From a virus: DNA of 64,000 nucleotides. Below are positions 33,232 to 48,459 of the stretch, in pieces. The stretch lies in the IMG/VR virus record IMGVR_UViG_3300006341_000010, positions 1 to 64,000 of that record; one strand, given 5' to 3'. The notes beneath the pieces were generated by a model that worked only from the letters and a program-made list of their open reading frames with translations, ran no database searches and was not told the DNA's origin. The translations under genes were made by a program, and so were the position numbers. The number at the start of each line of letters is the position of its first letter. Position 1 is the stretch's first letter.

Positions 33232-33259
33232 TTGACAAGGCAAACAGGTGGTTTATAAT
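33232..33259 (+). promoter_or_regulatory. Early rightward sigma70 promoter
   Basis: TTGACA (33232-33237), 16-base spacer, TATAAT (33254-33259). It is the last strong promoter before the first early gene at 33889 and probably drives the accessory early operon with a leader of roughly 620 bases. Confidence 0.8.
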
Positions 33260-33265
33260 GACCTC

Positions 33266-33888
33266 CACAAGCTGAGAAAACAGCTTTAACAATCCCTCAC
33301 TGGCTCATATGCTACAGGTGTTATTTAATAATTTAGGTTTATACTGGGTAGCTATCTACTCAGTTAGCAAGACTAGAAGCAGCTAGAGGTACAAACTAGC
33401 TCACTACTAGCAATTGCGTTAACTTTTAGCTGATTCCTCTAGGTAAGGCTATGATAAAGATAATTGCGTTGTGAACCCTGAGCGAGCCTTGATGAACTGA
33501 CTTACTTCTCTTAGCCCCTAAATTATTATTGCTCTTTAACAACTTGGTTAATTGATTCTTTCAATATATATTTCTTTTGTAGTAATACGATTAATGTATA
33601 TTGACCAATCCCCTTAGAACTTGAAGTTATCTAGTGGTAACACTAGACGTACTCCCTGTTTCATAGTATGAACTCCCTGTTTAGTCCAGTCCTAGAGGTG
33701 GATAATAGTATAAACGAATAGTCGTTGGTGGTTGGTTGAATCAGATAGTTAACCAATTAGTTAAAGTGTTAAACTATCAAGCCCTTAAGGCCATTAGGTC
33801 TTAGGGGTTTGGTGGTTTATTCAAAGTCTATTATCTTTAGTAGGCTTTGACACTTTAATTAACGTAAACACAATGTAAGGAGTCAGTT
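33266..33888 (+). promoter_or_regulatory. Long structured 5' leader of the early operon
   Basis: No gene is seen in these ~620 bases. They hold AATTGCGTT twice (33412 and 33462), a perfect boxA (33530-33542), ACTCCCTGTTT twice (about 33650 and 33671; a third copy lies at 32320), GATAGTT/AACTATC pairing (33744-33778), and a GC-rich hairpin (33781-33811) resembling the intercistronic family farther downstream. The combination suggests transcript processing or antitermination control. Confidence 0.6.
33530..33542 (+). promoter_or_regulatory. boxA antitermination element, rrn-type
   Basis: TGCTCTTTAACAA matches the boxA of enterobacterial rRNA operon leaders base for base. That RNA binds NusB-S10 and makes RNA polymerase resistant to Rho. 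Located about 265 bases downstream of the early promoter start and 350 before the first gene. No classical boxB was identified. Confidence 0.65.
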
Positions 33889-34542
33889 ATGACTACACAA
33901 GTAAATACTATCAATACTACCCTATCAGCGGCACAACTACTAGCTAAGATTGAAGAAGTAACAGCAGCGGAAAGAGTTACCAAAGCTGGCCTGTCAGTCT
34001 TATCACGTGAACTGTTAGCTCATGCGTACGAACACGGAGACGTACAGTTAATCAATACCTTAATGGGTACTGATGATTCTGGTAATTTCCGTTTAACACC
34101 TATGAACTGGCGTACAGCGGCTATGTATTTCAATAACTTCGTTGCTTTCACTAGCAACTATGAGAAAGACGTACAAGCATTTGCCACTAAAGGTCGTGGT
34201 AATCGTCAGGCATTAGTTTTCAATAAGAAATCTAAGGCTAAGTACGAGCGCTTATTGCCTACTGTTGAAGCATGGTTAGCAGAACCAACCAATGATATTT
34301 GGTCATGGTCTGATGAAAATGTAACAATGGATGATAAGCAGGTAGATTATCTTAAGAACATTGCTAATGATATTTCAAAAGCAATGGACGAAGAAAAAGG
34401 TAATCATAGTGCTGTAGAAGTATTAGCGACTATTATTGATAATACTGATATTGACCTAGCAACACTTAAAGCGTTCTTAGAGCGCCCTGTTGAAAGTCCA
34501 GCGGTACAAGGTGAACCAGAAACAACACAAGTAGCAGCATAG
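33889..34542 (+). CDS. First early gene, 217 aa, unknown function
   Basis: ATG with an AAGGAG site, the first gene of the rightward program. Helical N-terminal third (LSAAQLLAKIEEVTAAERVT), then LTPMNWRTAAMYFNNFVAFTS, a basic patch (TKGRGNRQALVFNKKSKAKYERLL) and an acidic C-terminal half. No family recognised. Position and codon choice suggest abundant early expression; a host-takeover role such as inhibition of a host enzyme is possible but unproven. Confidence 0.7.
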   Translation: MTTQVNTINTTLSAAQLLAKIEEVTAAERVTKAGLSVLSRELLAHAYEHGDVQLINTLMGTDDSGNFRLTPMNWRTAAMYFNNFVAFTSNYEKDVQAFATKGRGNRQALVFNKKSKAKYERLLPTVEAWLAEPTNDIWSWSDENVTMDDKQVDYLKNIANDISKAMDEEKGNHSAVEVLATIIDNTDIDLATLKAFLERPVESPAVQGEPETTQVAA

Positions 34543-34547
34543 CCTAG

Positions 34548-34603
34548 TGTTATACTCGAATCCCTTAAGGCCTTATAGGTCTTAGGGGCTTCTATGAATA
34601 ACA
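34548..34603 (+). repeat. Intercistronic ACTC/ATGA hairpin element, copy 1
   Basis: Outer stem TGTTAT (34548-34553) / ATAACA (34598-34603), internal loop ACTC on the 5' side and TATGA on the 3' side, inner stem GAAtCCCTTAAGGCC against GGTCTTAGGGGcTTC. It lies right after the stop of the 217-residue gene. Other copies keep the loop bases while the outer stem changes on both sides, which indicates a selected RNA structure. Candidate RNase III site or post-transcriptional control element. Confidence 0.75.
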
Positions 34604-34630
34604 TTAATTAACTAAATATGGAATATAACT

Positions 34631-34876
34631 ATGAATAACGTATCTTTCACGATTACGACTAAGCTAAATAATACCAGTGTATTAACTTATAAGGGTTTAA
34701 CTGCTAGATCTATGTTTATTAACTTCTATTGTGGGGTTAAAGGGACTGTAAGTCCATCTAGTACTATGCTAGATACAGCTAGTAAGATATTTGATATACT
34801 ACGAGATGGTAATGGTATATATGTTGATCCTGACGGTAATTCATACATGATGCTTGACTTAGATCAAGATAAGTAA
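34631..34876 (+). CDS. Early protein, 81 aa, unknown
   Basis: MNNVSFTITTKLNNTSVLTYKG... to LDLDQDK: small alpha/beta protein, no recognised domain. Flanked on both sides by copies of the ACTC/ATGA hairpin element, and its stop codon lies within the 5' arm of the next one. Confidence 0.55.
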   Translation: MNNVSFTITTKLNNTSVLTYKGLTARSMFINFYCGVKGTVSPSSTMLDTASKIFDILRDGNGIYVDPDGNSYMMLDLDQDK

Positions 34877-34928
34877 TAAACTAGTAGCCCTTTAGGTCTT
34901 TAAGTCCTAAGGGGTTATTATGATTATT
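34875..34928 (+). repeat. Intercistronic hairpin element, copy 2
   Basis: Outer stem AATAA (34875-34879) / TTATT (34924-34928); internal loop ACTA / ATGA; inner stem GTAGCCCTTTAGG / CCTAAGGGGTTAT. Outer stem differs from copy 1 but remains paired. Confidence 0.7.
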
Positions 34929-34960
34929 ATTTAATCCATTAACTACTAAAGGTAATAACT

Positions 34961-35143
34961 ATGCTAAATAATTTATATGATGAATACCCTATTGACTGTA
35001 AACCTAAAGTTCAAATCAAAGGTAATATTGTCATGAATAAACATGGTGATGTTGTATGTTCAGTTGGATGCTTAGAGGCTTATTTCTCTAATCAACTAAC
35101 ACCCAAGGCTAAAGAAGTAATAGAGAGTTATTTATATGTCTAG
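34961..35143 (+). CDS. Early protein, 60 aa, unknown
   Basis: MLNNLYDEYPIDCKPKVQIK... with VMNKHGDVVCSVGCLEAYF, resembling the core VLVMNKYGVVKSICQKADY of the 51-residue protein at 35419, so the two may be distant paralogues. Overlaps the next gene by 8 bases. No domain recognised. Confidence 0.5.
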   Translation: MLNNLYDEYPIDCKPKVQIKGNIVMNKHGDVVCSVGCLEAYFSNQLTPKAKEVIESYLYV

Positions 35144-35318
35144 TATATTTTATGTAATCACTGTTATATTGTTAGTACTTGCATTTATTGCCAACCTATT
35201 AAGTTCCATACCATTTTTAATTAAATCTAAGGAATTTCATCAAGGTTGTGCGGTAAGTTATGCAATTAGTGGGTTCATAGTCCTAATAATAGGGCTAATT
35301 CTCACTGTAAGCGTCTAG
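35136..35318 (+). CDS. Small inner-membrane protein, 60 aa, two TM segments
   Basis: MSSIFYVITVILLVLAFIAN (TM1, about residues 4-27) and AISGFIVLIIGLILTVSV (TM2, about 43-60), joined by a short loop with KSKEFHQG. Typical of early phage membrane proteins that may affect superinfection or host envelope; function unknown. Confidence 0.6.
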   Translation: MSSIFYVITVILLVLAFIANLLSSIPFLIKSKEFHQGCAVSYAISGFIVLIIGLILTVSV

Positions 35319-35393
35319 GAGCGCTTTTAAGAGGGTATCTGGTACAATGGTACTGGGTATCTTCCTAAAAGCTCTTACAATCCCGTATAGGGC
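35319..35393 (+). other. Intercistronic hairpins without the ACTC loop
   Basis: A long imperfect hairpin pairs GAGCGCTTTTA (about 35320) with TAAAAGCTCTT (about 35366), with an inner GGTAC-AATG-GTACTGG stem. A small CCC-GTATA-GGG hairpin followed by CTTTAT comes next and may act as a weak terminator. This junction replaces the usual ACTC/ATGA element. Confidence 0.55.
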
Positions 35394-35418
35394 TTTATAA
35401 CTAACTAAGGAAATAACT

Positions 35419-35574
35419 ATGAGCAGAAAAATGATTAATGTAACAATCCACCGTCCAGCAGTTTCTCAAATCCAAGAGATTCCTAAGGCTAAACAAGTTC
35501 TAGTAATGAACAAGTATGGTGTTGTTAAATCTATTTGCCAAAAAGCTGACTATAAGATGAGTTCAGCGGCCTAA
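35419..35574 (+). CDS. Early protein, 51 aa, unknown
   Basis: ATG at 35419 with an AAGGAAA site. Product MSRKMINVTIHRPAVSQIQE... ending MSSAA. Shares a short motif (MNKYGVVKSICQKADY) with the 60-residue protein at 34961. Good initiation signals and position between hairpins support it as a real gene. Confidence 0.55.
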   Translation: MSRKMINVTIHRPAVSQIQEIPKAKQVLVMNKYGVVKSICQKADYKMSSAA

Positions 35575-35909
35575 GTGCAGACTCGAAGCCCTTTAGACCA
35601 TCCAGCCTTGTTGCGTTCACCGTAATGGCTAAAAGGTCTGAGGGGTTTCTCTGGGTGTACTTTCCCATATTCCTTTAAATATATACTCAAAGCTATTTAA
35701 ATCTGTTGATTACCCAATAGTGGTGGTTTAAGTAGCTTTTATGAATATATTTCCATTCCTTATATTTATGTATGATATACTCAAAGTCCTTGTTGCAGCA
35801 GGGGCTTTTATGAATATCATAGATGTTCCTTTTAGTTAATGTTATACTCAAAGTCCTTAGGTTTTCGTAGATCTCTGATCTCTTCCTAGGGGCTTTTTTG
35901 AATAACATT
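35575..35909 (+). repeat. Four tandem hairpin elements in a gene-free stretch
   Basis: The 365 bases between the 51- and 184-residue genes hold no gene but four successive elements: 35575-35660 (GTGCA/TGTAC, loop ACTC, divergent 3' loop), 35677-35752 (AAATATAT/ATATATTT, ACTC/ATGA), 35772-35820 (ATGATAT/ATATCAT, ACTC/ATGA) and 35838-35909 (AATGTTAT/ATAACATT, ACTC/TTGA). Each outer stem is different and still perfectly or nearly perfectly paired. They could be remnants after gene loss or a source of small RNAs. Confidence 0.75.
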
Positions 35910-35939
35910 TCGTTATTTATTTAACTAATAAACAAAACT

Positions 35940-36494
35940 ATGAATGTATTTTACCTTAATCACGACCCTGAGCAGGCTGCATTAGATCATTGTAGTCAGC
36001 ATAGAGGTAAGATGATAATAGAATATTGCCAGATATTGAGTACAGCTCACCGGCTTTTAGATAACATTGATGATGATAACGAAGATTACTATAAAGTAAC
36101 TCATGTTAATCATCCCTCTGTTGTCTGGGCTAGGGAGTCTAAGTACAATTATATGTGGGTATATCGTTGTATGGCTAAATTAGCTCAGTTAATGCCTAAT
36201 ATAGCCCCTCAGCGCCTTGTGAAGCTATTATCTAAACCGCCGATGAATATACCCTCTACCCCATTCTTTTATCCTCCTGTAGCAGCTCCTAGTTGCTTTA
36301 AGGAGTTAGCTAAACGGAATGGTGTTGTGTATGCTTATCAACATTATTGTAACTACAAGTTCTTCGTTTGGAGAATTAGAGACTATAAGCAGCGGATATA
36401 TGTTTATTTTCATAATCGACCATCATGGTATGTTAGGCTTAAGAAACCTAACTGGGATTATGTTAATGAAGTTATAGAAGCTGATATGAAGTAG
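35940..36494 (+). CDS. Conserved phage protein of the MNxFYLxxDPxxAAxxHC type, 184 aa
   Basis: Starts MNVFYLNHDPEQAALDHCSQ, then GKMIIEYCQILSTAHRLLD and THVNHPSVVWARESKYNYMW. I recognise this pattern from a widespread phage family, where the first line usually reads MNIFxLDxDPxxAAxxxCDKHxxKM; conserved His, Cys, Lys and Arg residues suggest a nucleic-acid enzyme or binding protein. Its function is not known to me. About 30 bases after the hairpin array. Confidence 0.65.
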   Translation: MNVFYLNHDPEQAALDHCSQHRGKMIIEYCQILSTAHRLLDNIDDDNEDYYKVTHVNHPSVVWARESKYNYMWVYRCMAKLAQLMPNIAPQRLVKLLSKPPMNIPSTPFFYPPVAAPSCFKELAKRNGVVYAYQHYCNYKFFVWRIRDYKQRIYVYFHNRPSWYVRLKKPNWDYVNEVIEADMK

Positions 36495-36535
36495 CAAACT
36501 CGATGCAGTCTCATTAGGCTGTATTTATGATTGTT
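36493..36535 (+). repeat. Intercistronic hairpin element, copy after the 184-aa gene
   Basis: Outer stem AGCAA (36493-36497) / TTGTT (36531-36535), internal loop ACTC / ATGA, inner stem GATGCAG / CTGTATT. Inner stem sequence is unlike the GCCCTTA type of other copies, yet the internal loop is identical. Confidence 0.7.
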
Positions 36536-36561
36536 ATTAATCAAAACTAAGAGAGTTAATT

Positions 36562-37158
36562 ATGAAAAGTCAATTTAGAGCTGTCAATGAGATAACTTTA
36601 CCATATATCAATGGTGAGTTTTCTATGATCCCTTTCGACCTTGAGACTCTCTCAGGTTTACCCCGAGATTTACAAAAGGTTGCTAAGGATATGCTCCAAG
36701 GTCTTAAAACCCTCACTGGAACTGCTTATTTTACCATTCACGGTAAGACCTTGAAGGCCAAAGGGACTTTAAGACGTGGTGGGGCGCACATTGATGGCAA
36801 CTATGAGCCACACTTGATGTCCTTTGGGGGTTCAGGTGGTGGTAATGGTTGGAAAGTTGGTGAAAATGGCCCTGCTATTAACACTAACTTGCACGATAGA
36901 CAGTATAATAATCCTAACGGTGGTGTTATCTTGGCTACAAACTTCGCTAGCTGCTTAGGTTGGCAAGGTGAGTACGATGGTATGCCTAATGTTGGTGGTG
37001 ATTGTAGTCATATTAAGCTAGATCAGCCTGAATTGCTCAAAGAAGACCTAGTGTATTATGGTAATAACCACTTTATACATGAATCTTTGCCTGTTGACAG
37101 AGACGTCCACCGTGTATTTGCTCGGATAACGTTACCTGAAGACCATATATACCAGTAG
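36562..37158 (+). CDS. Putative 2OG-Fe(II) oxygenase-like protein, 198 aa
   Basis: RRGGAHIDGNYEPHLMSFGG supplies an H-x-D pair (about residues 74-76), and FIHESLPVDRDVHRVFARITLP near the C-terminus supplies a distal His (about 172) and Arg residues spaced as in double-stranded beta-helix Fe(II)/2-oxoglutarate oxygenases. Glycine-rich middle. If correct it could hydroxylate a base, a protein or a small molecule. The assignment is from motif spacing only. Confidence 0.45.
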   Translation: MKSQFRAVNEITLPYINGEFSMIPFDLETLSGLPRDLQKVAKDMLQGLKTLTGTAYFTIHGKTLKAKGTLRRGGAHIDGNYEPHLMSFGGSGGGNGWKVGENGPAINTNLHDRQYNNPNGGVILATNFASCLGWQGEYDGMPNVGGDCSHIKLDQPELLKEDLVYYGNNHFIHESLPVDRDVHRVFARITLPEDHIYQ

Positions 37159-37199
37159 CAAACTAGAAGCAACCCTACGGGGTTGTTTTTATGATTGTT
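37157..37199 (+). repeat. Intercistronic hairpin element
   Basis: Outer stem AGCAA (37157-37161) / TTGTT (37195-37199), internal loop ACTA / ATGA, inner stem GCAACCC-TACG-GGGTTGT followed by TTTT. The inner hairpin plus T-run could also work as a terminator. Confidence 0.7.
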
Positions 37200-37248
37200 A
37201 TTTATACAATCTAACACTTTGTTTAAACTAATATGGAGTTATTTAACT

Positions 37249-37437
37249 ATGAAATATTTTAAAGTTGTATCGAATGTTACTGGTAAAACGGTTGTATCAG
37301 GGATTAATAAGAAATCAACTGCTAAAGCTGACAGAGATAAACTGAACGCTGACGCAGGTTTTGTGTTTAATCCCGAAAAACCTAACGCCCCTATGCCTTT
37401 TAAGGTATCTAAGGACGTCGATCACCCTAAGTACTAG
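37249..37437 (+). CDS. Early protein, 62 aa, unknown
   Basis: Start placed at ATG 37249, preceded by TGGAGT, rather than at any farther upstream in-frame codon. MKYFKVVSNVTGKTVVSGIN, a Lys-rich centre and ...FKVSKDVDHPKY. No domain recognised; nine bases before the next gene. Confidence 0.55.
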   Translation: MKYFKVVSNVTGKTVVSGINKKSTAKADRDKLNADAGFVFNPEKPNAPMPFKVSKDVDHPKY

Positions 37438-37446
37438 GAGGCTATT

Positions 37447-38526
37447 ATGGCTAATTGGTACGATAAAGGTAATTTTGTCTTTAAGGACTTAGAGAGCTAT
37501 AAGATCTTCATTGATAAGGTAGTAGACTATTTTGAAATAGGATGTACTGATGAAGAACAGGATAGTCTCCTATCTTGGGAGTATTCTGAAAACGAATGGG
37601 AACGCATAACACAGACGTATGATGAAGGAGGTAATGCTTTTTCTAGATACCTCTGCTTTTCTTCCCCTTACGTTAAAGGAAAAATCAATGATAATGATGG
37701 TAGTTTAGACCTTTATGATTTAATCGTTGACGGTAATAGTACCTATACATACAGGAAAGTCCCTATCAACCAAAAGATCTTTAATGAGCTTATTGAAACT
37801 AAACACCTAGTTCCCAAAAAAGTTAACCCTAAACAGTTAACCTTTTGGAATGCTAAGGCAGGGATGTATATCACTAATGCAGGTGCTAGAAATTGTACCT
37901 TTAAACTCAGGGAAATAAGGCATGTATGCGGTAGTGAGATTGTTCTATGTAACGGTTCTAAGATCACTACAGATAGTCAGTGTAGTTATTGGTCAATCTT
38001 AGAGAACTCTGAAGTTGAGCCTCTATATAAGGAATACTTCGAAGCGTATGAAGATACCCATACTTTCTATAAGAAGTGGGTTGAAAAACAAATTAAAGCA
38101 GTTAAAGTTGAACCACCACAGGAAAATACAACAATGCAAAAGTTAAAACAAACAGCAGTAGCAACAGCAGTAGCAAACAAATCAGCGGGTATTGAAGCAG
38201 CTAAGTTAAAAGTAGGTAAAACTGCTAATAATGCAGCGGCTAAGATGATTAAGCCTAAACTCCCTATGGGTTTTAAAGGTGCAGCAGACCATCCCCTGTT
38301 TAAAATTGCAATTGCTAATGCAGCATCCTTCGCAGTCCAGCAGATAGGTTCTCAGAACCCTAAAGCTCTTGCGATTACCGAAGCCATGATGACCTCAGCT
38401 TACTATGAGCTAGTAGATCAGATTGACGTTGAGGGTATGCTTGATGAACTTCTAGGTAAGTTCAATGGCTCAGCGGTTGATAAGCTCGTAGAAGCTAAGG
38501 CCGAACAAATTACTATTGATGAGTAA
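37447..38526 (+). CDS. Early protein, 359 aa, two-part, unknown
   Basis: N-terminal ~215 residues are acidic and aromatic (MANWYDKGNFVFKDLESYKI, CTDEEQDSLLSWEYSENEWE). A Gln/Thr/Ala-rich linker (about 220-245) leads to a basic then hydrophobic Ala-rich C-terminal region (HPLFKIAIANAASFAVQQIG). No family recognised. Starts 9 bases after the previous stop with an AGGAGG site and ends within a hairpin element. Confidence 0.6.
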   Translation: MANWYDKGNFVFKDLESYKIFIDKVVDYFEIGCTDEEQDSLLSWEYSENEWERITQTYDEGGNAFSRYLCFSSPYVKGKINDNDGSLDLYDLIVDGNSTYTYRKVPINQKIFNELIETKHLVPKKVNPKQLTFWNAKAGMYITNAGARNCTFKLREIRHVCGSEIVLCNGSKITTDSQCSYWSILENSEVEPLYKEYFEAYEDTHTFYKKWVEKQIKAVKVEPPQENTTMQKLKQTAVATAVANKSAGIEAAKLKVGKTANNAAAKMIKPKLPMGFKGAADHPLFKIAIANAASFAVQQIGSQNPKALAITEAMMTSAYYELVDQIDVEGMLDELLGKFNGSAVDKLVEAKAEQITIDE

Positions 38527-38569
38527 TAAACTAGTAGCCCTTAAGTAATTAGGGGCTATTATGATTGTT
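38525..38569 (+). repeat. Intercistronic hairpin element before the tRNA
   Basis: Outer stem AATAA (38525-38529) / TTGTT (38565-38569), internal loop ACTA / ATGA, inner stem GTAGCCCTTAA / TTAGGGGCTAT. It lies 23 bases before tRNA-Arg, where cleavage could help tRNA 5' maturation (inference). Confidence 0.7.
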
Positions 38570-38592
38570 ATTCTTGGAGATTAACTAATTAA

Positions 38593-38669
38593 GTCCTCGT
38601 AGCTCAGATGGATAGAGCGACGGCCTCCTAAGCCGTAGGTCACTGGTTCGAATCCAGTCGGGGACGCCA
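38593..38669 (+). tRNA. tRNA-Arg (anticodon CCT)
   Basis: Full cloverleaf: acceptor GTCCTCG/CGGGGAC, D-arm GCTC...GAGC, anticodon stem ACGGC/GCCGT with loop CTCCTAA (anticodon CCT, reads AGG), T-arm ACTGG-TTCGAAT-CCAGT, discriminator G and encoded CCA (38667-38669). AGG is used frequently in the phage genes, which gives the tRNA an obvious purpose. Confidence 0.97.
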
Positions 38670-38670
38670 T

Positions 38671-38752
38671 ATTGTGAGTAAGCCTATCGCTATATAAGAT
38701 ATACGGCTGGGGTACAGCGATGTAACAGGTTCGAGTCCTAACCACAATACCA
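38671..38752 (+). tRNA. tRNA-like / degenerate tRNA sequence
   Basis: Two bases after tRNA-Arg. ATTGTG (38671-38676) pairs with CACAAT (38743-38748), followed by A and an encoded CCA (38750-38752); AGG-TTCGAGT-CCT forms a T-loop with only three clear pairs. AGCC/GGCT (38681/38705) and GCTG/CAGC (about 38706-38718) give other stems, but no standard D-arm and anticodon arm in the right order. Either a decayed tRNA or an unusual tRNA mimic; no anticodon assigned. Confidence 0.45.
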
Positions 38753-38779
38753 CATTAACTAACTAAAGAGGAATAGATT

Positions 38780-38923
38780 ATGATTATATTAGCAATGATA
38801 TTTTCTTTCATATTCGCCCTGTTTGCTATGGTAAATAGTGAAGAAGAAAACCATGTACGTTGTGTTATCTATTGGGCTTTGAGTCTTGTTTGTATCTCTT
38901 ATATTTACCTACAGACTAACTAA
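38780..38923 (+). CDS. Small membrane protein, 47 aa
   Basis: ATG at 38780 after AGAGGAAT. MIILAMIFSFIFALFAMVNS (TM1) and VIYWALSLVCISYIYLQTN (TM2) with a short acidic loop SEEENH. First of a run of about seven small membrane proteins. Function unknown. Confidence 0.6.
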   Translation: MIILAMIFSFIFALFAMVNSEEENHVRCVIYWALSLVCISYIYLQTN

Positions 38924-38936
38924 TAGAGGAAACATT

Positions 38937-39128
38937 ATGGAAATTTATTTAATAGGTTTAGTAGTTAGTCTCGTACTTTGTATTTTACTTGAGTTGTTCC
39001 TACCTAGTAAGGTTGATTCTGGGACTGTAGGTGGTATTATGTTTACCATGGCTATATTATCATGGGCAGGGGTATTACTTCTGTTTTGTGGGTGTATAGC
39101 TAAAGCCCTTAAGTACCTAAGGAGTTAA
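38937..39128 (+). CDS. Small membrane protein, 63 aa
   Basis: Start at ATG 38937, preceded by AGAGGAAAC; an upstream in-frame TTG would overlap the previous gene without a site. MEIYLIGLVVSLVLCILLEL is TM1, IMFTMAILSWAGVLLLFCGC is TM2, then a basic C-terminus. Confidence 0.6.
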   Translation: MEIYLIGLVVSLVLCILLELFLPSKVDSGTVGGIMFTMAILSWAGVLLLFCGCIAKALKYLRS

Positions 39129-39129
39129 C

Positions 39130-39354
39130 ATGTTCTCATTCTCAGTATATTTAATTTCAATAGCTATCATTTGGTTGTTTGGTTATGTATTTATACTCAC
39201 AGATAACCAAACTGAACCTAATGTTAAAGTATTATCTGTATCATTTGTATGCTTAATCCTCAGTACCCTAGGGCCTGTAGGGGCTTTATGGATGGTATTT
39301 TCTGTCTTACTTATCGTAACTCAATTATTATGGAACAAATATGTGCGAGGATAG
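39130..39354 (+). CDS. Small membrane protein, 74 aa
   Basis: Three hydrophobic stretches: MFSFSVYLISIAIIWLFGYV, VLSVSFVCLILSTLGPVGAL and WMVFSVLLIVTQLLW. Starts right after the previous stop and overlaps the next gene by 14 bases, so translation is coupled. Confidence 0.6.
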   Translation: MFSFSVYLISIAIIWLFGYVFILTDNQTEPNVKVLSVSFVCLILSTLGPVGALWMVFSVLLIVTQLLWNKYVRG

Positions 39355-39517
39355 CAGGGTATTAGAAGCAATAGCAACAGTGTTGTTGGTGGTTTTTGCA
39401 TTAGTATGTTATTTACACGAACCCTTTTACATTAAGTTAACAGGCGGAGTGTTAGTTGGTTTGATTATAATTATAAATATTATTGATTATTTCGAATCAA
39501 AGGTTGACAAGAAGTGA
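39341..39517 (+). CDS. Small membrane protein, 58 aa
   Basis: ATG at 39341 inside the end of the previous gene. MCEDSRVLEAIATVLLVVFA (TM1), GGVLVGLIIIINIIDY (TM2), ending ESKVDKK. The last codons contain the -35 box of the promoter at 39504, so coding and promoter sequence overlap. Confidence 0.55.
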   Translation: MCEDSRVLEAIATVLLVVFALVCYLHEPFYIKLTGGVLVGLIIIINIIDYFESKVDKK

Positions 39518-39532
39518 AAAGTGTGATATAAT
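39504..39532 (+). promoter_or_regulatory. Consensus sigma70 promoter
   Basis: TTGACA (39504-39509), 17-base spacer, TATAAT (39527-39532). About 75 bases before the first of three paralogous membrane protein genes. Flanks (GGTTGACAA... and TGATATAATATTAA) match the promoter at 8773. Confidence 0.87.
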
Positions 39533-39607
39533 ATTAAGTATACCTTAAGGTCTTTAGGTTTATTTATTATTTATATCTATAATATTAATTAATATAGGAA
39601 TATAACT

Positions 39608-40237
39608 ATGATAGATTATATCTTTAGTACCTTTGGGTACATACCTGTCCTTAAGAGTCTTGCAGTATTATTAATTACTATGATTCTCTTATCCATCCTA
39701 GCTTTAGTAGTTAATGCTATTGCTTACTTCGCTTTAGCTCAAGATGATTTAGACAAACCCCTGTTTAAAATCACTGGGTTATTCTCTAAGATCTTTAAGT
39801 TCTTAATGGTTCCTCAGATTAAATGGAACAGTAATTATTACTCTTATACTTGGGGTAATTTACTCCCTTTCCTATCTAATAAATTATTCACAAATCATGA
39901 ATATACCCAATGTTATCTACGGAAATATGGTGATGATTCAATTGGTGGTTGTTCAGATTATAAAAGAGCATTGGATTGCTACCTAGAACCTAATCACTCC
40001 TCAGCTACCTTAGGTATATCTTTTTGGCATATAGCTTGTTTGCTATTCCGCTTAGTACTTGCTGGTATATTCCTTGATTTATCTTTATTAGCTTTTACCT
40101 ACTCCCCTCTCGCAACTTTATCTGTCCTAGGTACTATCTCTACCCTGTTCGCTACCCGATTCATCTCTAAGAAGCTGTGGAAAGTTACGGCTAAAACTGA
40201 CAACCATGAAGACCGTATCTCTAAGTTAGAAGGTTAA
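39608..40237 (+). CDS. Membrane protein, paralogue 1 of 3, 209 aa
   Basis: N-terminal TM helix (SLAVLLITMILLSILALVVN), then QDDLDKPLFKITGLFSKIFKFLM, a soluble domain with Cys/Trp residues, two C-terminal TM segments (CLLFRLVLAGIFLDLSLLAF; LSVLGTISTLFATRFI) and a conserved cytoplasmic tail KLWKVTAKTDNHEDRISKLEG. The same layout is found in the next two genes. Function unknown; an envelope role such as superinfection exclusion is possible. Confidence 0.7.
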   Translation: MIDYIFSTFGYIPVLKSLAVLLITMILLSILALVVNAIAYFALAQDDLDKPLFKITGLFSKIFKFLMVPQIKWNSNYYSYTWGNLLPFLSNKLFTNHEYTQCYLRKYGDDSIGGCSDYKRALDCYLEPNHSSATLGISFWHIACLLFRLVLAGIFLDLSLLAFTYSPLATLSVLGTISTLFATRFISKKLWKVTAKTDNHEDRISKLEG

Positions 40238-40242
40238 TAATT

Positions 40243-40842
40243 ATGTCTGTGTTAGTAGCTTATTTATATTTAGCAGGGGCTTATATATCAGCCTCTTTTA
40301 TCTGCTTAGTTCTAGGGATAGTGGTTTACTACCTGTTGTCACAAGATAAACTCGATAAACCTCTGTTCGATAGCTTCACCTTGTTTAACAAGATCTTTAA
40401 GCCTTTCATGCAACCTTATGTTAGGGTAAATGGTGGTTGTTTTTATCTTGAAGAATTATCTGAAGATGATAAGAGGTTAGTGTTTAAAGAAGATACTGAT
40501 TACTTGCCTCGATATGCTTACTTAGATCGTGATGGTGATTTAGATTATACCACTAGGGAAATCCCTAAGATCTTTGAGTTCGCTAAGGACTATAAGGAAC
40601 ATGAGACAGAGATTTGCTTTGATATTATCAAGTTAATCAGGTGGTTCTTTATTGGTGCGTTGGTTGCTTGGGGCTGTGACTTTGGCTTTACTACCTTTGC
40701 TGGTTATCCAGTAGTAACCTTAAGTATCTTAGGTACTATAGTTGCTGGTGTTTCTATTAGATTCCTATCAGGTCGTCTCTGGAAAGTAACAGCTAAAACT
40801 AATAATCATGAGACCCGAATTAAGAAACTAGAAGGTGAGTAA
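40243..40842 (+). CDS. Membrane protein, paralogue 2 of 3, 199 aa
   Basis: Same architecture: N-terminal TM, LSQDKLDKPLFDSFTLFNKI, charged middle, two C-terminal TMs (VVTLSILGTIVAGVSIRFLS) and tail RLWKVTAKTNNHETRIKKLE. Starts 5 bases after paralogue 1. Closest to paralogue 1 in the LDKPLF and WKVTAKT motifs. Confidence 0.7.
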   Translation: MSVLVAYLYLAGAYISASFICLVLGIVVYYLLSQDKLDKPLFDSFTLFNKIFKPFMQPYVRVNGGCFYLEELSEDDKRLVFKEDTDYLPRYAYLDRDGDLDYTTREIPKIFEFAKDYKEHETEICFDIIKLIRWFFIGALVAWGCDFGFTTFAGYPVVTLSILGTIVAGVSIRFLSGRLWKVTAKTNNHETRIKKLEGE

Positions 40843-40844
40843 TT

Positions 40845-41546
40845 ATGTTAGAGTTCTTACAAAATTATTTAATGGTATCTATGTCTTGGGTAACTATCAT
40901 GATATCGTTGGTTACATTAGGAGCAAGTGGGGTGCTATTTGCTTGGCTTGTTAACTACTCCTTGAACCAAGAGGCTTGGGGTGAAGATAAGTTCTGCGCT
41001 ATTAAAACTGTATGTGATTTCATTGGTAATATTACATATTGTAAGGTTCCTAAGGCTATTATTGGTGATGATAGTTATGTCTTTTACTATAAAGGTAATG
41101 AGCTAGAGAAAGTACCATCGTATGAATATAGAGAGCAGTATCATTTATGGGATAGGATATTAGGTCAGTATTATTCTCCTCCTTGCGATGATCTTATCTC
41201 CCTGATGAGGGTACACCACTGCGAGAAAGTATCTACCTACGTGAGGAGAGCTGATGGAGGCTGTAACTTAACTTATAAGAAAATTAAAGGTCAGGTATCT
41301 ACTGAGATGGAAGTTAAGGCAAGGTCTTGCTTCACTTGGAGAGGTCTCTTAGCTGCTGTAGTTTTAGACTTAACATTCTATGTGTTTACTTTAGCTCCTG
41401 TAGCTACCTTGAGTATCTTAGGCTTAGCCTCTACGATATATTCAACCCGTTGGTTGTCAGGTAAGCTTGCTAAGACAACTCAAGCTAAGGATAATCACGA
41501 AGAACGGATAACTAAACTGGAGAAAGATGATGATAAAACCGAGTAA
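40845..41546 (+). CDS. Membrane protein, paralogue 3 of 3, 233 aa
   Basis: N-terminal TM (MVSMSWVTIMISLVTLGASG), Cys- and Tyr-rich middle domain, C-terminal TMs (LLAAVVLDLTFYVFTLAPVA; TLSILGLASTIYSTRWLS) and tail KTTQAKDNHEERITKLEKDD. The most divergent of the three. Overlaps the following gene by 20 bases. Confidence 0.7.
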   Translation: MLEFLQNYLMVSMSWVTIMISLVTLGASGVLFAWLVNYSLNQEAWGEDKFCAIKTVCDFIGNITYCKVPKAIIGDDSYVFYYKGNELEKVPSYEYREQYHLWDRILGQYYSPPCDDLISLMRVHHCEKVSTYVRRADGGCNLTYKKIKGQVSTEMEVKARSCFTWRGLLAAVVLDLTFYVFTLAPVATLSILGLASTIYSTRWLSGKLAKTTQAKDNHEERITKLEKDDDKTE

Positions 41547-41778
41547 GTTATTTTATTTGTGGTTAACAGTAGTATCTATTAATGCCGCAGTCTTAATCCC
41601 TACTGTCTTCTTGTTTAATTATTATGAAAGCATAGGCCATTGGTCATCAGGGGCTTGGGAGTTTATGTTAATCTGTGTTACGGCTACTAAAACTCTCCTC
41701 TGGATTATTGGTTTAGTGGGTGGTATATGCGATAAGAAATTCTTTACTGAGGTAGAGGGAGAGGGAGAGGGACGATGA
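41527..41778 (+). CDS. Small membrane protein, 83 aa
   Basis: Starts ATGATG within the end of paralogue 3. TM1 FYLWLTVVSINAAVLIPTVF, TM2 ATKTLLWIIGLVGGICD, and a tail EVEGEGEGR encoded by GAGGGAGAGGGA, which also supplies the ribosome-binding site for the next gene (ATGA overlap). Confidence 0.6.
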   Translation: MMIKPSKLFYLWLTVVSINAAVLIPTVFLFNYYESIGHWSSGAWEFMLICVTATKTLLWIIGLVGGICDKKFFTEVEGEGEGR

Positions 41779-41930
41779 AGACATTAGCTTTAGTTATCTT
41801 ATTCATAGCGATGTTAGTTGGCTTGGTATTAACTACTAAGTTATTATTAATTACTACCTCGATGGTGGTATTGATATTGCTTGGTCGTTATAGTACTAAG
41901 CTAATCCCTATGAAACAGAAGTGGGATTAA
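41775..41930 (+). CDS. Small membrane protein, 51 aa
   Basis: ATG at 41775 overlaps the previous stop as ATGA. MKTLALVILFIAMLVGLVLT and KLLLITTSMVVLILLG form two TM segments; basic C-terminus KLIPMKQKWD. Confidence 0.6.
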   Translation: MKTLALVILFIAMLVGLVLTTKLLLITTSMVVLILLGRYSTKLIPMKQKWD

Positions 41931-41933
41931 GGT

Positions 41934-42107
41934 ATGAAGCTATTTATCCTATCAGTTATATTCTTAGTAGTAGGTATTGTGATATTAATTTTAGCAATTA
42001 ATGCCTCACTAGGTACTACTAGAGACATAGAAGCTAGTCCTTTCTTGGGATGTGTTGGTGGTTTCTTTATTACCCAATCAATTAATATGTTTTACTCATT
42101 AATGTAG
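41934..42107 (+). CDS. Small membrane protein, 57 aa
   Basis: ATG at 41934, 3 bases after the previous stop. MKLFILSVIFLVVGIVILIL is TM1; a second, weaker hydrophobic segment (FLGCVGGFFITQSINMFYSL) follows TTRDIEAS. Last of the run of small membrane proteins; its stop lies beside a hairpin element. Confidence 0.58.
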   Translation: MKLFILSVIFLVVGIVILILAINASLGTTRDIEASPFLGCVGGFFITQSINMFYSLM

Positions 42108-42157
42108 TTGTAGACTCCATGTCCTTAAGGTTCTTAGGGGCATGTATGGTTGCAATT
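42106..42157 (+). repeat. Intercistronic hairpin element, last copy
   Basis: Outer stem AGTTGTAG (42106-42113) / TTGCAATT (42150-42157) with G-U pairs, internal loop ACTC / TATGG, inner stem CATGTCCTTAAG / CTTAGGGGCATG. This is the rightmost copy I could find; the ligase operon downstream has none. Confidence 0.65.
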
Positions 42158-44399: not shown

Positions 44400-45929
44400 A
44401 TTTGTGGTTTAGTAGGTGTAGCTGGTAACTTAATCCAGCGTGATGTAACTTTGTTTGGTCAGATGCTTTTAGCAGATGTGTTCCGTGGTAAACATGCAAC
44501 AGGTGTAATGCGAGTAGCCCATAATGGTCAGGCAATGTCTGTTCAACATGCCAAGTTAGCTATGTCATCAAAGTATTTCTTAGACTTACCTGTGTATGAT
44601 TTAATCACTGGCATTTCTCAATCATTAACAATCCTTGCAGGTCATAACCGCCATGCAACTAAAGGTGCATCAGACAATCATAAGTTTGCTCACCCATTTA
44701 AGCATGGTCACATTACCTTAATGCACAATGGTTCTTTAACTTCTCACTACAACCTAACACGTGGTACTAGTGAAACATTTACAGTAGACAGTGAAGCTAT
44801 TTGTTTTGCAATGTCTCGTGGTGAAGCACATGAAGTTATCCCTCAGCTTAACGGTGCCTTTGCTTTAGTGTGGGTTGATGAAGAAAAACAAACCCTTAAC
44901 TTCGTAAGAAACTCAGAGCGCCCACTCCACCTAGCATTTGATGAACGCTTAGGTAAGATCTACTGGGCATCAGAAAAAGATATGCTTAAGTGGTTACTTG
45001 ATCGTGACATGACGATGGCATCAGGTGGTTTCCGTTATGATCGTACAGAAGAACTGCCGGTGGGTGAGATCTGGTCTTTCCCAATCAACCAAAATTCTGT
45101 AGATCTTAAGGGCTGCGAGGTGACCTCAGTGGAAGTCTCTAAGCCCTTTACGTACACTGGCTATGGCAATTACGTCGGGGGTACTAACACAAAAAAAAGT
45201 CAGGGCGCAAACAACGCAAGCGCCAGCGCAAACAAGACAAGCGTCACCACAGGAAACTCAAACACCGGTAGTGTTAACAAAACTACTGGGACTAGCACTA
45301 CTGGTAACAGCAGTACTGGAATCCCTTGCCATGCAGCAGTGGATAACAGCGTTGGTACTGAGTACTTGCTTACTCCTAGTCTGGAAACGACTCTGAAAGC
45401 TTCATCTTCTAAGGTGTTAGACCATCTAGGTCGTCAGCAGATTGGTGTTCGCTCTTACATTAATGCCGCTGACCAGCAAGCAACTGAGTTAGATAAGCGA
45501 ATCCCTTTCTTCATCAAGAGCTTTGCTGTATATCCATCATCTGTTAACAAAGAACCTGAGAAAATATTGGGTTGTTTGAAAGGGAAGATGGTTGAGTATC
45601 CTTTCTCTGATATTATTATCCATGCTTGTACTAAGATGAAGTTTGATGAGTTGGTAGCTGAAGGTAACTCTATTGGTAGCTCTTACATTCAAGGCATCAA
45701 AGCTGAAGATACAGCTAAGCAGTTAGGTAAGTTGTCTGACTCACAAGCTAAGCTATTGTTTGATGTTGTCCTACGTGGTGATACTATTAAGCAGGTAGAA
45801 GAAGTAACTAACTACTTGTTTGATATGAATGAGATCCCTTCTTCATGGAAAGTATCTCAAGAACCTGAGGTCGTTAAGGGCATTGAGTTAGTAGTTGAGC
45901 AAGAGAAAGAACTAGCTCAAAAGAAGTAA
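44400..45929 (+). CDS. Class II glutamine amidotransferase with AUU start codon
   Basis: The protein begins (M)CGLVGVAGNLIQRDVTLFGQ: Cys2 is the N-terminal nucleophile of Ntn amidotransferases and must follow the initiator directly. That codon is ATT at 44400, with GGAGG (44387-44391) 8 bases upstream; the next possible start (44451) would delete Cys2. GHNRHATKGASDN and LMHNGSLTSH are further glutaminase motifs. A Thr/Ser/Asn-rich linker (about 250-310) leads to a C-terminal domain of unknown type (about 310-509). Likely supplies ammonia or transfers an amide for the ligases. Confidence 0.85.
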   Translation: MCGLVGVAGNLIQRDVTLFGQMLLADVFRGKHATGVMRVAHNGQAMSVQHAKLAMSSKYFLDLPVYDLITGISQSLTILAGHNRHATKGASDNHKFAHPFKHGHITLMHNGSLTSHYNLTRGTSETFTVDSEAICFAMSRGEAHEVIPQLNGAFALVWVDEEKQTLNFVRNSERPLHLAFDERLGKIYWASEKDMLKWLLDRDMTMASGGFRYDRTEELPVGEIWSFPINQNSVDLKGCEVTSVEVSKPFTYTGYGNYVGGTNTKKSQGANNASASANKTSVTTGNSNTGSVNKTTGTSTTGNSSTGIPCHAAVDNSVGTEYLLTPSLETTLKASSSKVLDHLGRQQIGVRSYINAADQQATELDKRIPFFIKSFAVYPSSVNKEPEKILGCLKGKMVEYPFSDIIIHACTKMKFDELVAEGNSIGSSYIQGIKAEDTAKQLGKLSDSQAKLLFDVVLRGDTIKQVEEVTNYLFDMNEIPSSWKVSQEPEVVKGIELVVEQEKELAQKK

Positions 45930-45934
45930 TAACG

Positions 45935-46083
45935 ATGGGGTATACTGTTGCGAGTGTGATGCACCATTCACCCGTGAAGATGCCCTGTCGTTTGGTATGT
46001 ACCTAGACGGAGATAAGAAAGAATTTATCTGTGACGTCTGTGTATTCTATGAAAAGAATCCTGAGATGGAGAAAAAATTATGA
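45935..46083 (+). CDS. Zinc-ribbon protein, start unresolved (possible frame disruption)
   Basis: The frame from 45943 reads YCCECDAPFTREDALSFGMY... FICDVCVFYEKNPEMEKKL with two CxxC knuckles, and its stop overlaps the next ATG as ATGA, typical of a real gene. No ATG, GTG, TTG or ATT lies in this frame before the first CxxC. ATG at 45935 is one base out of frame: ATGGGG followed by TATAC would be in frame with one extra G. Either an assembly homopolymer error, programmed frameshifting, or an unusual start. Role: probably binds zinc within the ligase operon. Confidence 0.55.
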
Positions 46084-46904
46084 GTACTATCATAGTAGAT
46101 GGTGTAGCAGTTGACTTAACTGTTGGGTGTGATCCTGAGCTGTTCGTAAAGGACGAGCAGGGTCTTGTTTCAGCACATGGTATGGTTGAAGGAACTAAAG
46201 AAGCTCCTAGTCCAGTAGAGAAAGGGGCTATCCAAGTTGACGGAATGGCCTTGGAGTTCAACATCAACCCAGCTGAAAGCCGTGAGGTGTTTATCGTTAA
46301 TACGATGTCTGTCATGCAAGACTTAGTAAAGAAAATTCCTCAGGGTCATACCCTAGTAGTAGCCCCAACTGCTAACTTTGGTAAAGCTTTAATTGACCAG
46401 CAGCCTGATGAAGCTAAAGAGCTAGGTTGCTCTGCTGATTACAATGCATACATGCAAGGTGCAGCTAACCCTAAGCCCAACGGCGACGTTGATTTCCGTA
46501 CGGCGGGTGGTCATATCCATGTGGGCTTCACTGAGAACGCTCACTCATCAGATCAGGAACACCAAGCTATCTGTCAAGAGATCATTAAGATGATGGACTT
46601 AATGCTCGGTGTTCCTTCAGTCCTTTTAGATGACGACAAGAAACGTCGTAGTCTTTACGGTGCTGCTGGTGCTTACCGCTCTAAGCCTTATGGTGTAGAG
46701 TATCGTTCGCTTAGTAACTTCTGGTTAAAGAGCAAGGAGTACATTGGTTGGGTCTATGACCAGACTGAAGTTACTATCAAGAAAGTCTTGGAAGGTTTAG
46801 ATGTTTCGGAAGATGCTGCTAAAATCCAAAGAGTTATTAACAGCTCTGATAAACAAGGAGCTAAAGAACTCATTCGTAAATACAACATTCAGTTACCAGT
46901 TTAG
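46080..46904 (+). CDS. phiEco32-like COOH-NH2 ligase, type 2 (glutamine synthetase-like fold)
   Basis: 274 residues. Family signatures: VGCDPELFVKDEQG near the N-terminus (metal/ATP-binding Glu), AIQVDGMALEFNINPA, RTAGGHIHVGF (His-x-His metal site) and YRSKPYGVEYRSLSNFWL (Arg/Glu site). This family forms amide bonds between carboxylates and amines using ATP. Start overlaps the zinc-ribbon stop. Product and substrate are unknown; probably a peptide or cell-wall modification. Confidence 0.85.
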   Translation: MSTIIVDGVAVDLTVGCDPELFVKDEQGLVSAHGMVEGTKEAPSPVEKGAIQVDGMALEFNINPAESREVFIVNTMSVMQDLVKKIPQGHTLVVAPTANFGKALIDQQPDEAKELGCSADYNAYMQGAANPKPNGDVDFRTAGGHIHVGFTENAHSSDQEHQAICQEIIKMMDLMLGVPSVLLDDDKKRRSLYGAAGAYRSKPYGVEYRSLSNFWLKSKEYIGWVYDQTEVTIKKVLEGLDVSEDAAKIQRVINSSDKQGAKELIRKYNIQLPV

Positions 46905-46914
46905 GAGGAAGATA

Positions 46915-47556
46915 ATGCCTGATATTAATATTAGTTCACGCTACCGTGGTTCAGGTGACATCTCTATGCGTCACAATGATACCTATGTAGGTGTAGTACA
47001 ACGTGATGGTTCGGTTACTCCTTATCGTTGTCATGGTGCTAGTAGCTCAGATAGTATCTCTATCTCTAAGGTCCAAGGGTTCCAAGGGGATAGTGATATG
47101 AACATCGGACTGAATGATGATCGCTTGTTACTTGATCGTCCTCAGTGTGGTTATGCTACCCTAAGGAATGTTGATGGTGATAAGACAGCAGTGTACTTCT
47201 GTACTCGTGCCCTTCGCCAGTACAAACGTTCTTTAGTTTACTCACACCTACATCGTACCCCTGCTGGTAGTGGCCGAGGGGTGGACTATAGTGACCGTGG
47301 GAACTTAGGGGCTGCCTTGTTTACATTCTTCAATGATGTATATTCTTCTGTTGAGAATGCAGTGAATGAACTCAAAGACACTGACGCTGTTTCAATAGCG
47401 ATTGGTAGTAAGTTTGCCTTAGCTAAGCATGAAGATAAAGGTATTGTCCTTTACTACAAGCGAGCAATAGTAGGTTGGTATGATCTTGAAGAAGAACAAG
47501 TCAAGTTAGTTAGTAGTTATCAACATCTTCAAGAACAATTAGAGGAGATCTCTTGA
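46915..47556 (+). CDS. Ligase-operon protein of unknown function, 213 aa
   Basis: Start set at ATG 46915 behind AGGAGGAAG; the long in-frame extension upstream overlaps the ligase gene and lacks a site. MPDINISSRYRGSGDISMRH... and YVGVVQRDGSVTPYRCHGAS form strands, then a helical C-terminus. No recognised family. Encoded between the two amidoligases, overlapping the second by one base (TGATG), so probably a partner or acceptor protein. Confidence 0.6.
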   Translation: MPDINISSRYRGSGDISMRHNDTYVGVVQRDGSVTPYRCHGASSSDSISISKVQGFQGDSDMNIGLNDDRLLLDRPQCGYATLRNVDGDKTAVYFCTRALRQYKRSLVYSHLHRTPAGSGRGVDYSDRGNLGAALFTFFNDVYSSVENAVNELKDTDAVSIAIGSKFALAKHEDKGIVLYYKRAIVGWYDLEEEQVKLVSSYQHLQEQLEEIS

Positions 47557-48458
47557 TGTTAGTCAGTGAAATTATTGGACGTAGTTCAGGTGGTTTAGCA
47601 GGTGAGTTGGGCTTAATGGTATCAGGTACTAAGGTAGGGGTAGAGATTGAGATCCAAACAAACTCTAGCTCCCATCCAGTGGATCGCTCAGAGTATTGGC
47701 GACCAGTATCTGAGGGTTCAGTACAGGGCTTTGAGATTGTTCTACGTGAACCTCAAGGCGGTACTGATTTAGTATCAGCTCTTGAGGAAGCTGAATCATT
47801 GGTTGATAGAATGGGTGGGAATGAGAAGTTCCCTGAGATGACTTCAGTCCATGTCCATGTTGATGTCCGTGACATGACAGAGATCCAGTTGTTTAACTTC
47901 CTCACATTAGCAATCATGTTCGAGCCTGTGTTATACAATTATGTAGAACCACATCGAAACAAGAACCACTTCTGTTTGCCAATGTCTGATGCTGATGATG
48001 TACTTGGTCGCTTGTATCGTTTGGTATCTCGCTACCGTCAGCATGGTAACATCAACCGTGATCAGTTACGATCTCTATTCTCACCAGATGAAGTTAAGTA
48101 TGCAGGTATTAACTTAAGTTCCATCCCGCACTACGGTTCCCTTGAGTTCCGAATGCACCATGGTACTGCAAGTTCTACCGCGTTGATCCGATGGATTAAT
48201 GTCCTGTTAAAGATGCATCAGTATGCTATGGAACCTAACCGTTCCCCTAATAACATCCTTGATACTAAGATTGAGGTTGGGATTGAAACAATATTCCAAC
48301 AAGTCCTTGGCCAATACTCAGGTGTGTTATCATACGAAGGCGTTGACGATGATATATTAGATGGGATCAGGAATGCACAGGACTTCGTTGCACTGTTCGC
48401 TCAGCCTGCGGGACGTAATGTCCTACAGGATATCCCTAATCAAACCCTAGGAGGATAA
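47556..48458 (+). CDS. Amidoligase (COOH-NH2 ligase, type 1-like)
   Basis: 300 residues, start ATG 47556 with AGAGGAG upstream. GVEIEIQTNSS is the first acidic motif of the amidoligase family, SVHVHVDVRDMTEIQLFNF the His-rich motif, and AGINLSSIPHYGSLEFRMHHGT the Glu/Arg/His motif, matching a glutamine-synthetase-like active site. Second ligase of this operon; two different types side by side suggest two sequential amide bonds. Confidence 0.85.
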   Translation: MLVSEIIGRSSGGLAGELGLMVSGTKVGVEIEIQTNSSSHPVDRSEYWRPVSEGSVQGFEIVLREPQGGTDLVSALEEAESLVDRMGGNEKFPEMTSVHVHVDVRDMTEIQLFNFLTLAIMFEPVLYNYVEPHRNKNHFCLPMSDADDVLGRLYRLVSRYRQHGNINRDQLRSLFSPDEVKYAGINLSSIPHYGSLEFRMHHGTASSTALIRWINVLLKMHQYAMEPNRSPNNILDTKIEVGIETIFQQVLGQYSGVLSYEGVDDDILDGIRNAQDFVALFAQPAGRNVLQDIPNQTLGG

Positions 48459-48459
48459 T

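What the first reader, a model, noticed from the sequence alone, without database searches (positions are those of the whole stretch)
34548..42157. Family of intercistronic hairpins with conserved ACTC/ATGA internal loop and covarying stems
About ten copies between early genes share one design: outer stem, 5' loop ACTC or ACTA, inner stem often GAAGCCCTTA/TAAGGGGCTTC, 3' loop (T)ATGA, outer stem. Outer stems change on both sides together: TGTTAT/ATAACA, ATGATAT/ATATCAT, AAATATAT/ATATATTT, AATAA/TTATT, AGCAA/TTGTT. That covariation shows selection on RNA structure with fixed loop bases, as for a protein or RNase recognition site. They occur only in the 34-42 kb early region.
Basis: partly seen in the sequence, partly recalled or inferred. 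Interest (0 to 1): 0.82.

Follow-up and report, generated by a model that had tools for sequence, protein, structure and literature searches.

The report
T7-type RNase III sites, marine phage
Ten RNA hairpins between the early genes of a marine phage have the same design as the places where the host enzyme RNase III cuts phage T7 messenger RNA, so this phage very probably has its long early message chopped into single-gene pieces by its host, although it lacks T7's own RNA polymerase.

Summary
Exactly ten copies lie at 34546-42157, all on the + strand, and a covariance-model scan of the whole record finds no other. Both stems covary strongly: 13 of 18 pairs show changes on both sides, and none of 500 shuffles reaches that. 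The identity of the hairpins can be settled. A model built only from the ten window copies hits the T7 RNase III processing sites R0.5, R1.1, R4.7, R6.5 and R18.5. It also hits six T3 stem-loops that the T3 record annotates as RNase III recognition sites (R0.3 only weakly). It hits 12 copies in the related Pseudoalteromonas phage Slicky01, and nothing else in 336 kb. ACTC/TATGA is the 4-nt/5-nt asymmetric internal loop of T7 R1.1, whose published cut at nt 5887 falls at TAT|GA. The hairpins follow upstream stop codons and precede the next gene. So these are T7-type RNase III sites that cut the early transcript and leave a hairpin on each 3' end. Cutting itself was not tested. What is new is the setting: the sites are dense in a roughly 65-kb marine phage lineage with no single-subunit RNA polymerase and no RNase III gene.

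The parts
34546..34605 (+). Site 1: outer AGTGTTAT/ATAACATT, loops ACTC/TATGA; predicted RNase III cut between 34595 and 34596 (TAT|GA)
   Evidence: 4 nt after the stop of ORF 33889-34542; next start at 34631; cut position inferred from T7 R1.1
34872..34931 (+). Site 2: outer AGTAATAA/TTATTATT, loops ACTA/TATGA; predicted cut 34921/34922
   Evidence: stop codon of ORF 34631-34876 lies in the 5' arm
35573..35662 (+). Site 3 (most divergent): outer AAGTGCAG/GTGTACTT, loops ACTC/TCTGG, long apical part; predicted cut 35652/35653
   Evidence: stop of a 51-aa ORF overlaps the 5' arm
35677..35752 (+). Site 4, first of three tandem sites with no gene between them: outer AAATATAT/ATATATTT, loops ACTC/TATGA; predicted cut 35742/35743
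35771..35821 (+). Site 5, tandem: outer TATGATAT/ATATCATA, loops ACTC/TATGA; predicted cut 35811/35812
35838..35909 (+). Site 6, tandem: outer AATGTTAT/ATAACATT, loops ACTC/TTTGA, T run next to the stem; predicted cut 35899/35900
   Evidence: next start at 35940
36490..36538 (+). Site 7: outer AGTAGCAA/TTGTTATT, loops ACTC/TATGA; predicted cut 36528/36529
   Evidence: stop of ORF 35940-36494 in the 5' arm; next start 36562
37154..37202 (+). Site 8: outer AGTAGCAA/TTGTTATT, loops ACTA/TATGA; predicted cut 37192/37193
   Evidence: stop of ORF 36562-37158 in the 5' arm
38522..38572 (+). Site 9: outer AGTAATAA/TTGTTATT, loops ACTA/TATGA; predicted cut 38562/38563; tRNA-Arg starts about 20 nt downstream
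   Evidence: stop of ORF 37447-38526 in the 5' arm
42106..42157 (+). Site 10: outer AGTTGTAG/TTGCAATT, loops ACTC/TATGG (as in T7 R18.5); predicted cut 42147/42148
   Evidence: stop of a 57-aa ORF overlaps the 5' arm
33770..33819 (+). Related leader hairpin upstream of the first early gene: 23 consecutive base pairs without the internal loop; weak model match. Possible RNase III substrate cut on both strands; not counted as an eleventh site
   Evidence: 14.7 bits; fold -34.5 kcal/mol, z -8.2
33232..33259 (+). Perfect sigma-70-type promoter match (TTGACA-16-TATAAT) upstream of the early region
   Evidence: consensus match only
39504..39532 (+). Second perfect sigma-70-type promoter match (TTGACA-17-TATAAT, preceded by TG) inside the early region
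   Evidence: consensus match only

Best explanation
The ten hairpins are T7-type (R1.1 class) RNase III processing sites. Host RNA polymerase transcribes the early genes as a long message (inferred from promoter matches and the absence of a T7-type RNA polymerase gene). At each gene junction the RNA folds into about 20 bp of double helix, split by an asymmetric ACUC/UAUGA internal loop (shown by covariation). Host RNase III binds the helix, and the internal loop restricts it to one cut on the 3' side at UAU|GA (inferred from T7 R1.1). The upstream mRNA then ends in the intact upper hairpin, which protects its 3' end. The downstream mRNA starts a few tens of nt before its start codon or tRNA. 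Three tandem sites without genes (35677-35909) would release short hairpin RNAs.
For: A model from the window copies alone finds T7 R0.5, R1.1, R4.7, R6.5 and R18.5 at E 1e-8 to 5e-6. It finds T3 R0.5, R1.1, R4.7, R6.5 and R18.5 at E 2e-8 to 8e-6, and T3 R0.3 at E 0.29. All six T3 hits coincide with stem-loops annotated 'RNase III recognition site'. There were no other hits at E<=1 in 336 kb outside this phage and Slicky01. T7 R1.1 has a 4-nt/5-nt internal loop with a primary cut recognised in vivo and in vitro (PMC6121014). That cut is at nt 5887 (PMC8708148). In V01146 the R1.1 loop ACTC starts at 5857 and TATGA is 5885-5889, so the cut is TAT|GA. Covariation. In 7 of 10 sites the upstream stop codon lies at the base of the 5' arm, against a background of 4%; T7 and T3 show the same, 3 of 5 each. 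N4, phiKMV, phiEco32, RIO-1, HMO-2011, lambda and Aeromonas phage 1233 have none.
Against: No transcript ends or cleavage data exist for this phage. The host and its RNase III specificity are unknown; Sinorhizobium RNase III, for example, cuts R1.1 partly at an atypical site (PMC6121014). ACTA copies can pair more of the loop than ACTC copies, which could change single to double cutting. The 3'-end protection step rests on T7 knowledge, and the literature disagrees on single or double cutting of R1.1 (PMC6993053).
Confidence: 0.93

Rival explanations
1. The hairpins are binding sites for a phage or host RNA-binding protein other than RNase III, for example a translational repressor or antiterminator acting on early genes, with the ACTC/TATGA loop as its recognition element.
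For: Fixed loop bases with free covarying stems fit any structure-specific binder. No cleavage data are available.
Against: The same element occurs in T7, T3, VP4 and SP6, and in T7/T3 it is the known RNase III site. These phages share no obvious early RNA-binding protein with this one (inference). Sites sit at gene ends rather than over start codons.
Confidence: 0.03
2. The hairpins are intrinsic transcription terminators or attenuators that grade early expression.
For: Three of them are flagged as terminator-like, and TTTGA variants such as 35838-35909 carry a short T run.
Against: Terminator-like matches are not enriched over shuffles (10 against 7.4 +/- 2.7). Most copies have no T run (for example GGGGCTTCTATGA). 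Terminators need neither a conserved internal loop nor an 8-bp outer stem that closes downstream.
Confidence: 0.02
3. The hairpins are chiefly recombination or repeat elements (a mobile cassette boundary), and their RNA structure is incidental.
For: Slicky01 has similar tandem early genes, each preceded by a nearly identical hairpin and start region. Tandem sites without genes occur in all three relatives.
Against: Compensatory changes at 15 of 18 pairs show selection on the folded RNA; a DNA repeat would keep its sequence rather than its pairing.
Confidence: 0.02

Closest known systems
Phage T7 RNase III processing sites R0.5, R1.1, R4.7, R6.5, R18.5
   Same: 8-bp outer stem, 4-nt ACTC / 5-nt TATGA internal loop, upper stem of about 10 bp, intercistronic position, upstream stop codon often in the 5' arm; matched by a model trained on the window alone
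   Different: T7 upper stems start AAGG rather than RAAG. T7 sites serve early and late transcripts, several under the T7 RNA polymerase, whereas here all ten are early and no such polymerase gene is present.
Phage T3 RNase III recognition sites (annotated stem-loops in NC_003298)
   Same: Six of the ten annotated sites are hit by the window model, R0.3 weakly
   Different: T3 R1, R1.3, R3.8 and R13 are not hit.
Sites in Vibrio phage VP4 (7), Salmonella phage SP6 (2) and Vibrio phage CHOED (1)
   Same: Same loops and stems
   Different: All three phages have a single-subunit RNA polymerase gene.
Hairpins of Pseudoalteromonas phage Slicky01 (12) and IMG/VR contig 3300032274_000058 (8)
   Same: Same family and, in Slicky01, the same early-region layout; tandem sites in both; Slicky01 is the closest isolated relative
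   Different: The number and position of the genes between sites differ.

Membership tests
T7-type RNase III processing site (R1.1 class) | About 20 bp of helix with outer and inner stem kept by selection | tested here: met
   98.9% of cells paired, 13 of 18 pairs with changes on both sides, 0/500 shuffles
T7-type RNase III processing site (R1.1 class) | Asymmetric 4-nt/5-nt internal loop ACTC/TATGA | tested here: met
   30 marine-group and 27 other sites compared; CT and G invariant, ACTC/TATGA majority in both groups; 4/5 loop of R1.1 from PMC6121014
T7-type RNase III processing site (R1.1 class) | Scissile sequence TAT|GA in the 3' loop | tested here: met
   Sequence present as TATGA in 7 of 10 sites, as TATGG, TTTGA or TCTGG in the rest. 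Sequence only; the cut itself is not shown.
T7-type RNase III processing site (R1.1 class) | Recognition by a shared sequence-structure model | tested here: met
   Window-only model R1 hits T7 and annotated T3 sites
T7-type RNase III processing site (R1.1 class) | Intercistronic position in a polycistronic early transcript | tested here: met
   7 of 10 sites have the upstream stop at the base of the 5' arm; the others form a tandem noncoding run. That it is one transcript is inferred.
T7-type RNase III processing site (R1.1 class) | Cleavage by RNase III, lost in rnc mutants | not testable with these tools
   needs RNA-end mapping or an in vitro assay
T7-group phage (Autographiviridae) | Single-subunit RNA polymerase gene | tested here: not met
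   No PF00940 match in the whole record or in complete Slicky01; found in T7, SP6, VP4, CHOED and MQM1
Phage with its own RNase III | RNase III domain gene | tested here: not met
   No PF14622 match in G000 or Slicky01; the control rings in E. coli and other bacteria
Rfam family | Match to a curated RNA family at gathering score | tested here: not met
   only the tRNA at 38593 matches

The most novel reading that the evidence does not exclude
A phage lineage without a T7-type RNA polymerase has made RNase III cutting the organising principle of its early operon. Many early gene junctions carry a T7-type site placed on the upstream stop codon, so that translation termination and processing are coupled. 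Tandem gene-less sites release small hairpin RNAs with their own role.
Probability: 0.15. Interest if true: 0.6.

Novelty: new member of a known kind. Interest (0 to 1): 0.36.

Why it matters
T7-type RNase III sites are known from the T7 group of phages. Finding a dense set with the same loop bases in a distantly related marine phage lineage shows that the ACUC/UAUGA element is a transferable, or repeatedly evolved, RNase III signal rather than a peculiarity of T7. It gives 30 naturally covarying new substrates for defining what RNase III reads. It also gives a covariance model that separated seven phages with sites from seven phages without at E<=0.001 (MQM1 has only weak matches), so such sites, for which the Rfam scan returned no family, can be annotated in phage genomes.

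Tried and rejected
Strict pattern search of viral contigs: none. Relatives through the terminase in viral contigs: none. Genome-wide bacterial pattern scan: 2 hits, about the number expected by chance (own estimate about 2), each scoring only about 20 bits; rejected. Kink-turn idea: only one strand carries GA, so the tandem sheared pairs are missing; rejected by inspection. Promoter reading of TATACT at the 5' loop: no consistent -35 element and no enrichment of promoter matches; rejected. The 39.5-kb AT-rich stretch (39528-39580) folds no better than shuffles (z -0.9); not a copy. Literature searches for RNase III sites in Pseudoalteromonas phages or for Slicky01 found no paper.
Full report
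WHAT IS THERE. The window is part of a 66.4-kb virus record. Its closest isolated relative is Pseudoalteromonas phage vB_PtuP_Slicky01, with primase 76% and terminase 69% identical. Structural-type genes run on the - strand up to about 32 kb and early/replication genes on the + strand from 33.9 kb. Between the early genes lie ten hairpins of one design: an 8-bp outer stem, a 5' loop ACTC or ACTA, an inner stem of at least 9-10 bp with a variable apex, a 3' loop usually TATGA, and the closing outer stem. A covariance model scan of the whole record finds exactly these ten, all on the + strand, between 34546 and 42157 (the unfiltered scan shows no further copy above 15 bits).

IS IT MORE THAN CHANCE. 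On the ten window copies 98.9% of pair cells are standard pairs, 13 of 18 pairs show changes on both sides and the covariation score is 0.794. No shuffle of 500 reaches any of these values, and sliding the partner by 1-3 columns drops pairing to 43-55%. Adding 12 Slicky01 copies gives 15 of 18 pairs with changes on both sides. The alignments used a fixed-length core with the variable apex cut out. The copies are paralogues and orthologues, so the shuffle counts are not strict probabilities. The slide control keeps relatedness and still falls far short.

WHAT IT IS. A scan with the loop bases hit T7 at 862, 1437 and 36826, which are RNase III sites R0.3, R0.5 and R18.5 (T7 site names and positions were recalled from memory). 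To test this without circularity I built model R1 from the ten window copies only. Over 336 kb it hit the 12 Slicky01 copies, five T7 places and six T3 places, and nothing else at E<=1 besides the window copies. The T3 record annotates ten stem-loops as 'RNase III recognition site'. All six T3 hits coincide with annotated ones: R0.5, R1.1, R4.7, R6.5, R18.5 and, weakly (E 0.29), R0.3. The T7 hits are R0.5, R1.1, R4.7, R6.5 and R18.5. R1.1 is described as having an asymmetric 4-nt/5-nt internal loop with a primary cleavage site used in vivo and in vitro (PMC6121014), and its cleavage is at nt 5887 (PMC8708148). In V01146 the 4-nt loop is ACTC at 5857-5860 and the 5-nt loop TATGA at 5885-5889, so the cut falls at TAT|GA. 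The window hairpins have the same 4/5 loop with the same bases.

DISTRIBUTION. Model R3 (window, Slicky01, T7 and T3 sites) found 7 sites in Vibrio phage VP4, 2 in SP6 and 1 in CHOED. It found none in N4, phiKMV, phiEco32, RIO-1, HMO-2011, lambda or Aeromonas phage 1233, and two weak matches in MQM1 at one palindromic place. An IMG/VR contig from the same metagenome as another relative carries 8 sites. Four IMG/VR contigs of 41-43 kb with a T7-type polymerase gene carry one or two each. A looser T7-type pattern matched 118 stretches in viral contigs; most of the 80 listed come from contigs of 38-45 kb, consistent with T7-like phages. Across 57 collected sites the loop bases C10, T11 and G4' are invariant, and the A-U pair at columns 7/42 is U-A in one. 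Neither this phage nor complete Slicky01 has a single-subunit RNA polymerase gene, while T7, SP6, VP4, CHOED and MQM1 do. None of these records has an RNase III gene, so the enzyme would be the host's.

ANATOMY AND MECHANISM. In 7 of 10 window sites the upstream gene's stop codon lies within or next to the 5' arm, against 4% of positions in the region. The same holds for 8 of 12 Slicky01 sites, 3 of 5 T7 sites and 3 of 5 T3 sites. In four window sites the stop occupies columns 3-5 of the arm, the same register as T7 R0.5 and R18.5. The next start codon or tRNA follows within about 20-50 nt where there is one. Perfect sigma-70 promoter matches lie at 33232 and 39504, consistent with host transcription. 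The steps shown here are structure selection, identity of design with RNase III sites, and position. The steps inferred are one transcript, cleavage by host RNase III at TAT|GA, a protective hairpin on each upstream mRNA, and a short leader on each downstream mRNA. A single cut that leaves a folded 3' end stabilises mRNA, but reports disagree on whether R1.1 is cut once or twice (PMC6993053).

DETAILS LEFT OPEN. C10 and G4' can pair, and minimum-energy folds often form that pair. ACTA copies can close further pairs, so their cutting mode may differ. Sites 3 to 6 are spaced 104, 94 and 67 nt apart with no gene of 45 aa or more ending at sites 4-6, and Slicky01 and contig G003 also have close tandem pairs. 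Processing would release short hairpin RNAs there. The leader hairpin at 33770-33819 shares the upper stem of site 1 but is paired through 23 consecutive base pairs without an internal loop, which would suit double-strand cutting. Whether the sharing with T7 reflects descent, transfer or convergence on what RNase III reads cannot be decided from these data.

VERDICT. The kind is known (T7-type RNase III processing sites). The lineage, the density and the absence of a phage polymerase are the new points. Novelty here is judged against the held papers and collections; subscription papers were not available.

Noticed in passing
window 33765-33824 (+): Uninterrupted 23-bp hairpin in the leader of the first early gene (z -8.2), sharing the upper stem of site 1 but without the internal loop; could be a double-cut RNase III site or a decoy.
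   Followed up: partly
window 35677-35909 (+): Three tandem sites with no gene between them; similar tandem pairs in Slicky01 (L010 4023-4123) and contig G003 (L056 458-560).
   Followed up: partly
window 38670-38753 (+): After tRNA-Arg(CCT), a tRNA-like stretch with TATTGTG...CACAATACCA ends and a TTCGAGT T-loop that neither ARAGORN nor Rfam reports; perhaps a degenerate tRNA.
   Followed up: no
L010 2600-5100 (-), Slicky01: Several early genes share a repeated protein-coding motif, and each is preceded by a nearly identical hairpin plus start region, as if gene and hairpin duplicate together as a cassette.
   Followed up: no
window 44451-50310 (+): Cluster of glutamine amidotransferase, phiEco32-like COOH-NH2 ligase, amidoligase and ATP-grasp (RimK-like) genes, function in the phage unclear.
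   Followed up: no
window, whole record and Slicky01: No single-subunit RNA polymerase although the related phages CHOED and MQM1 have one; how middle and late genes are transcribed is unknown.
   Followed up: partly
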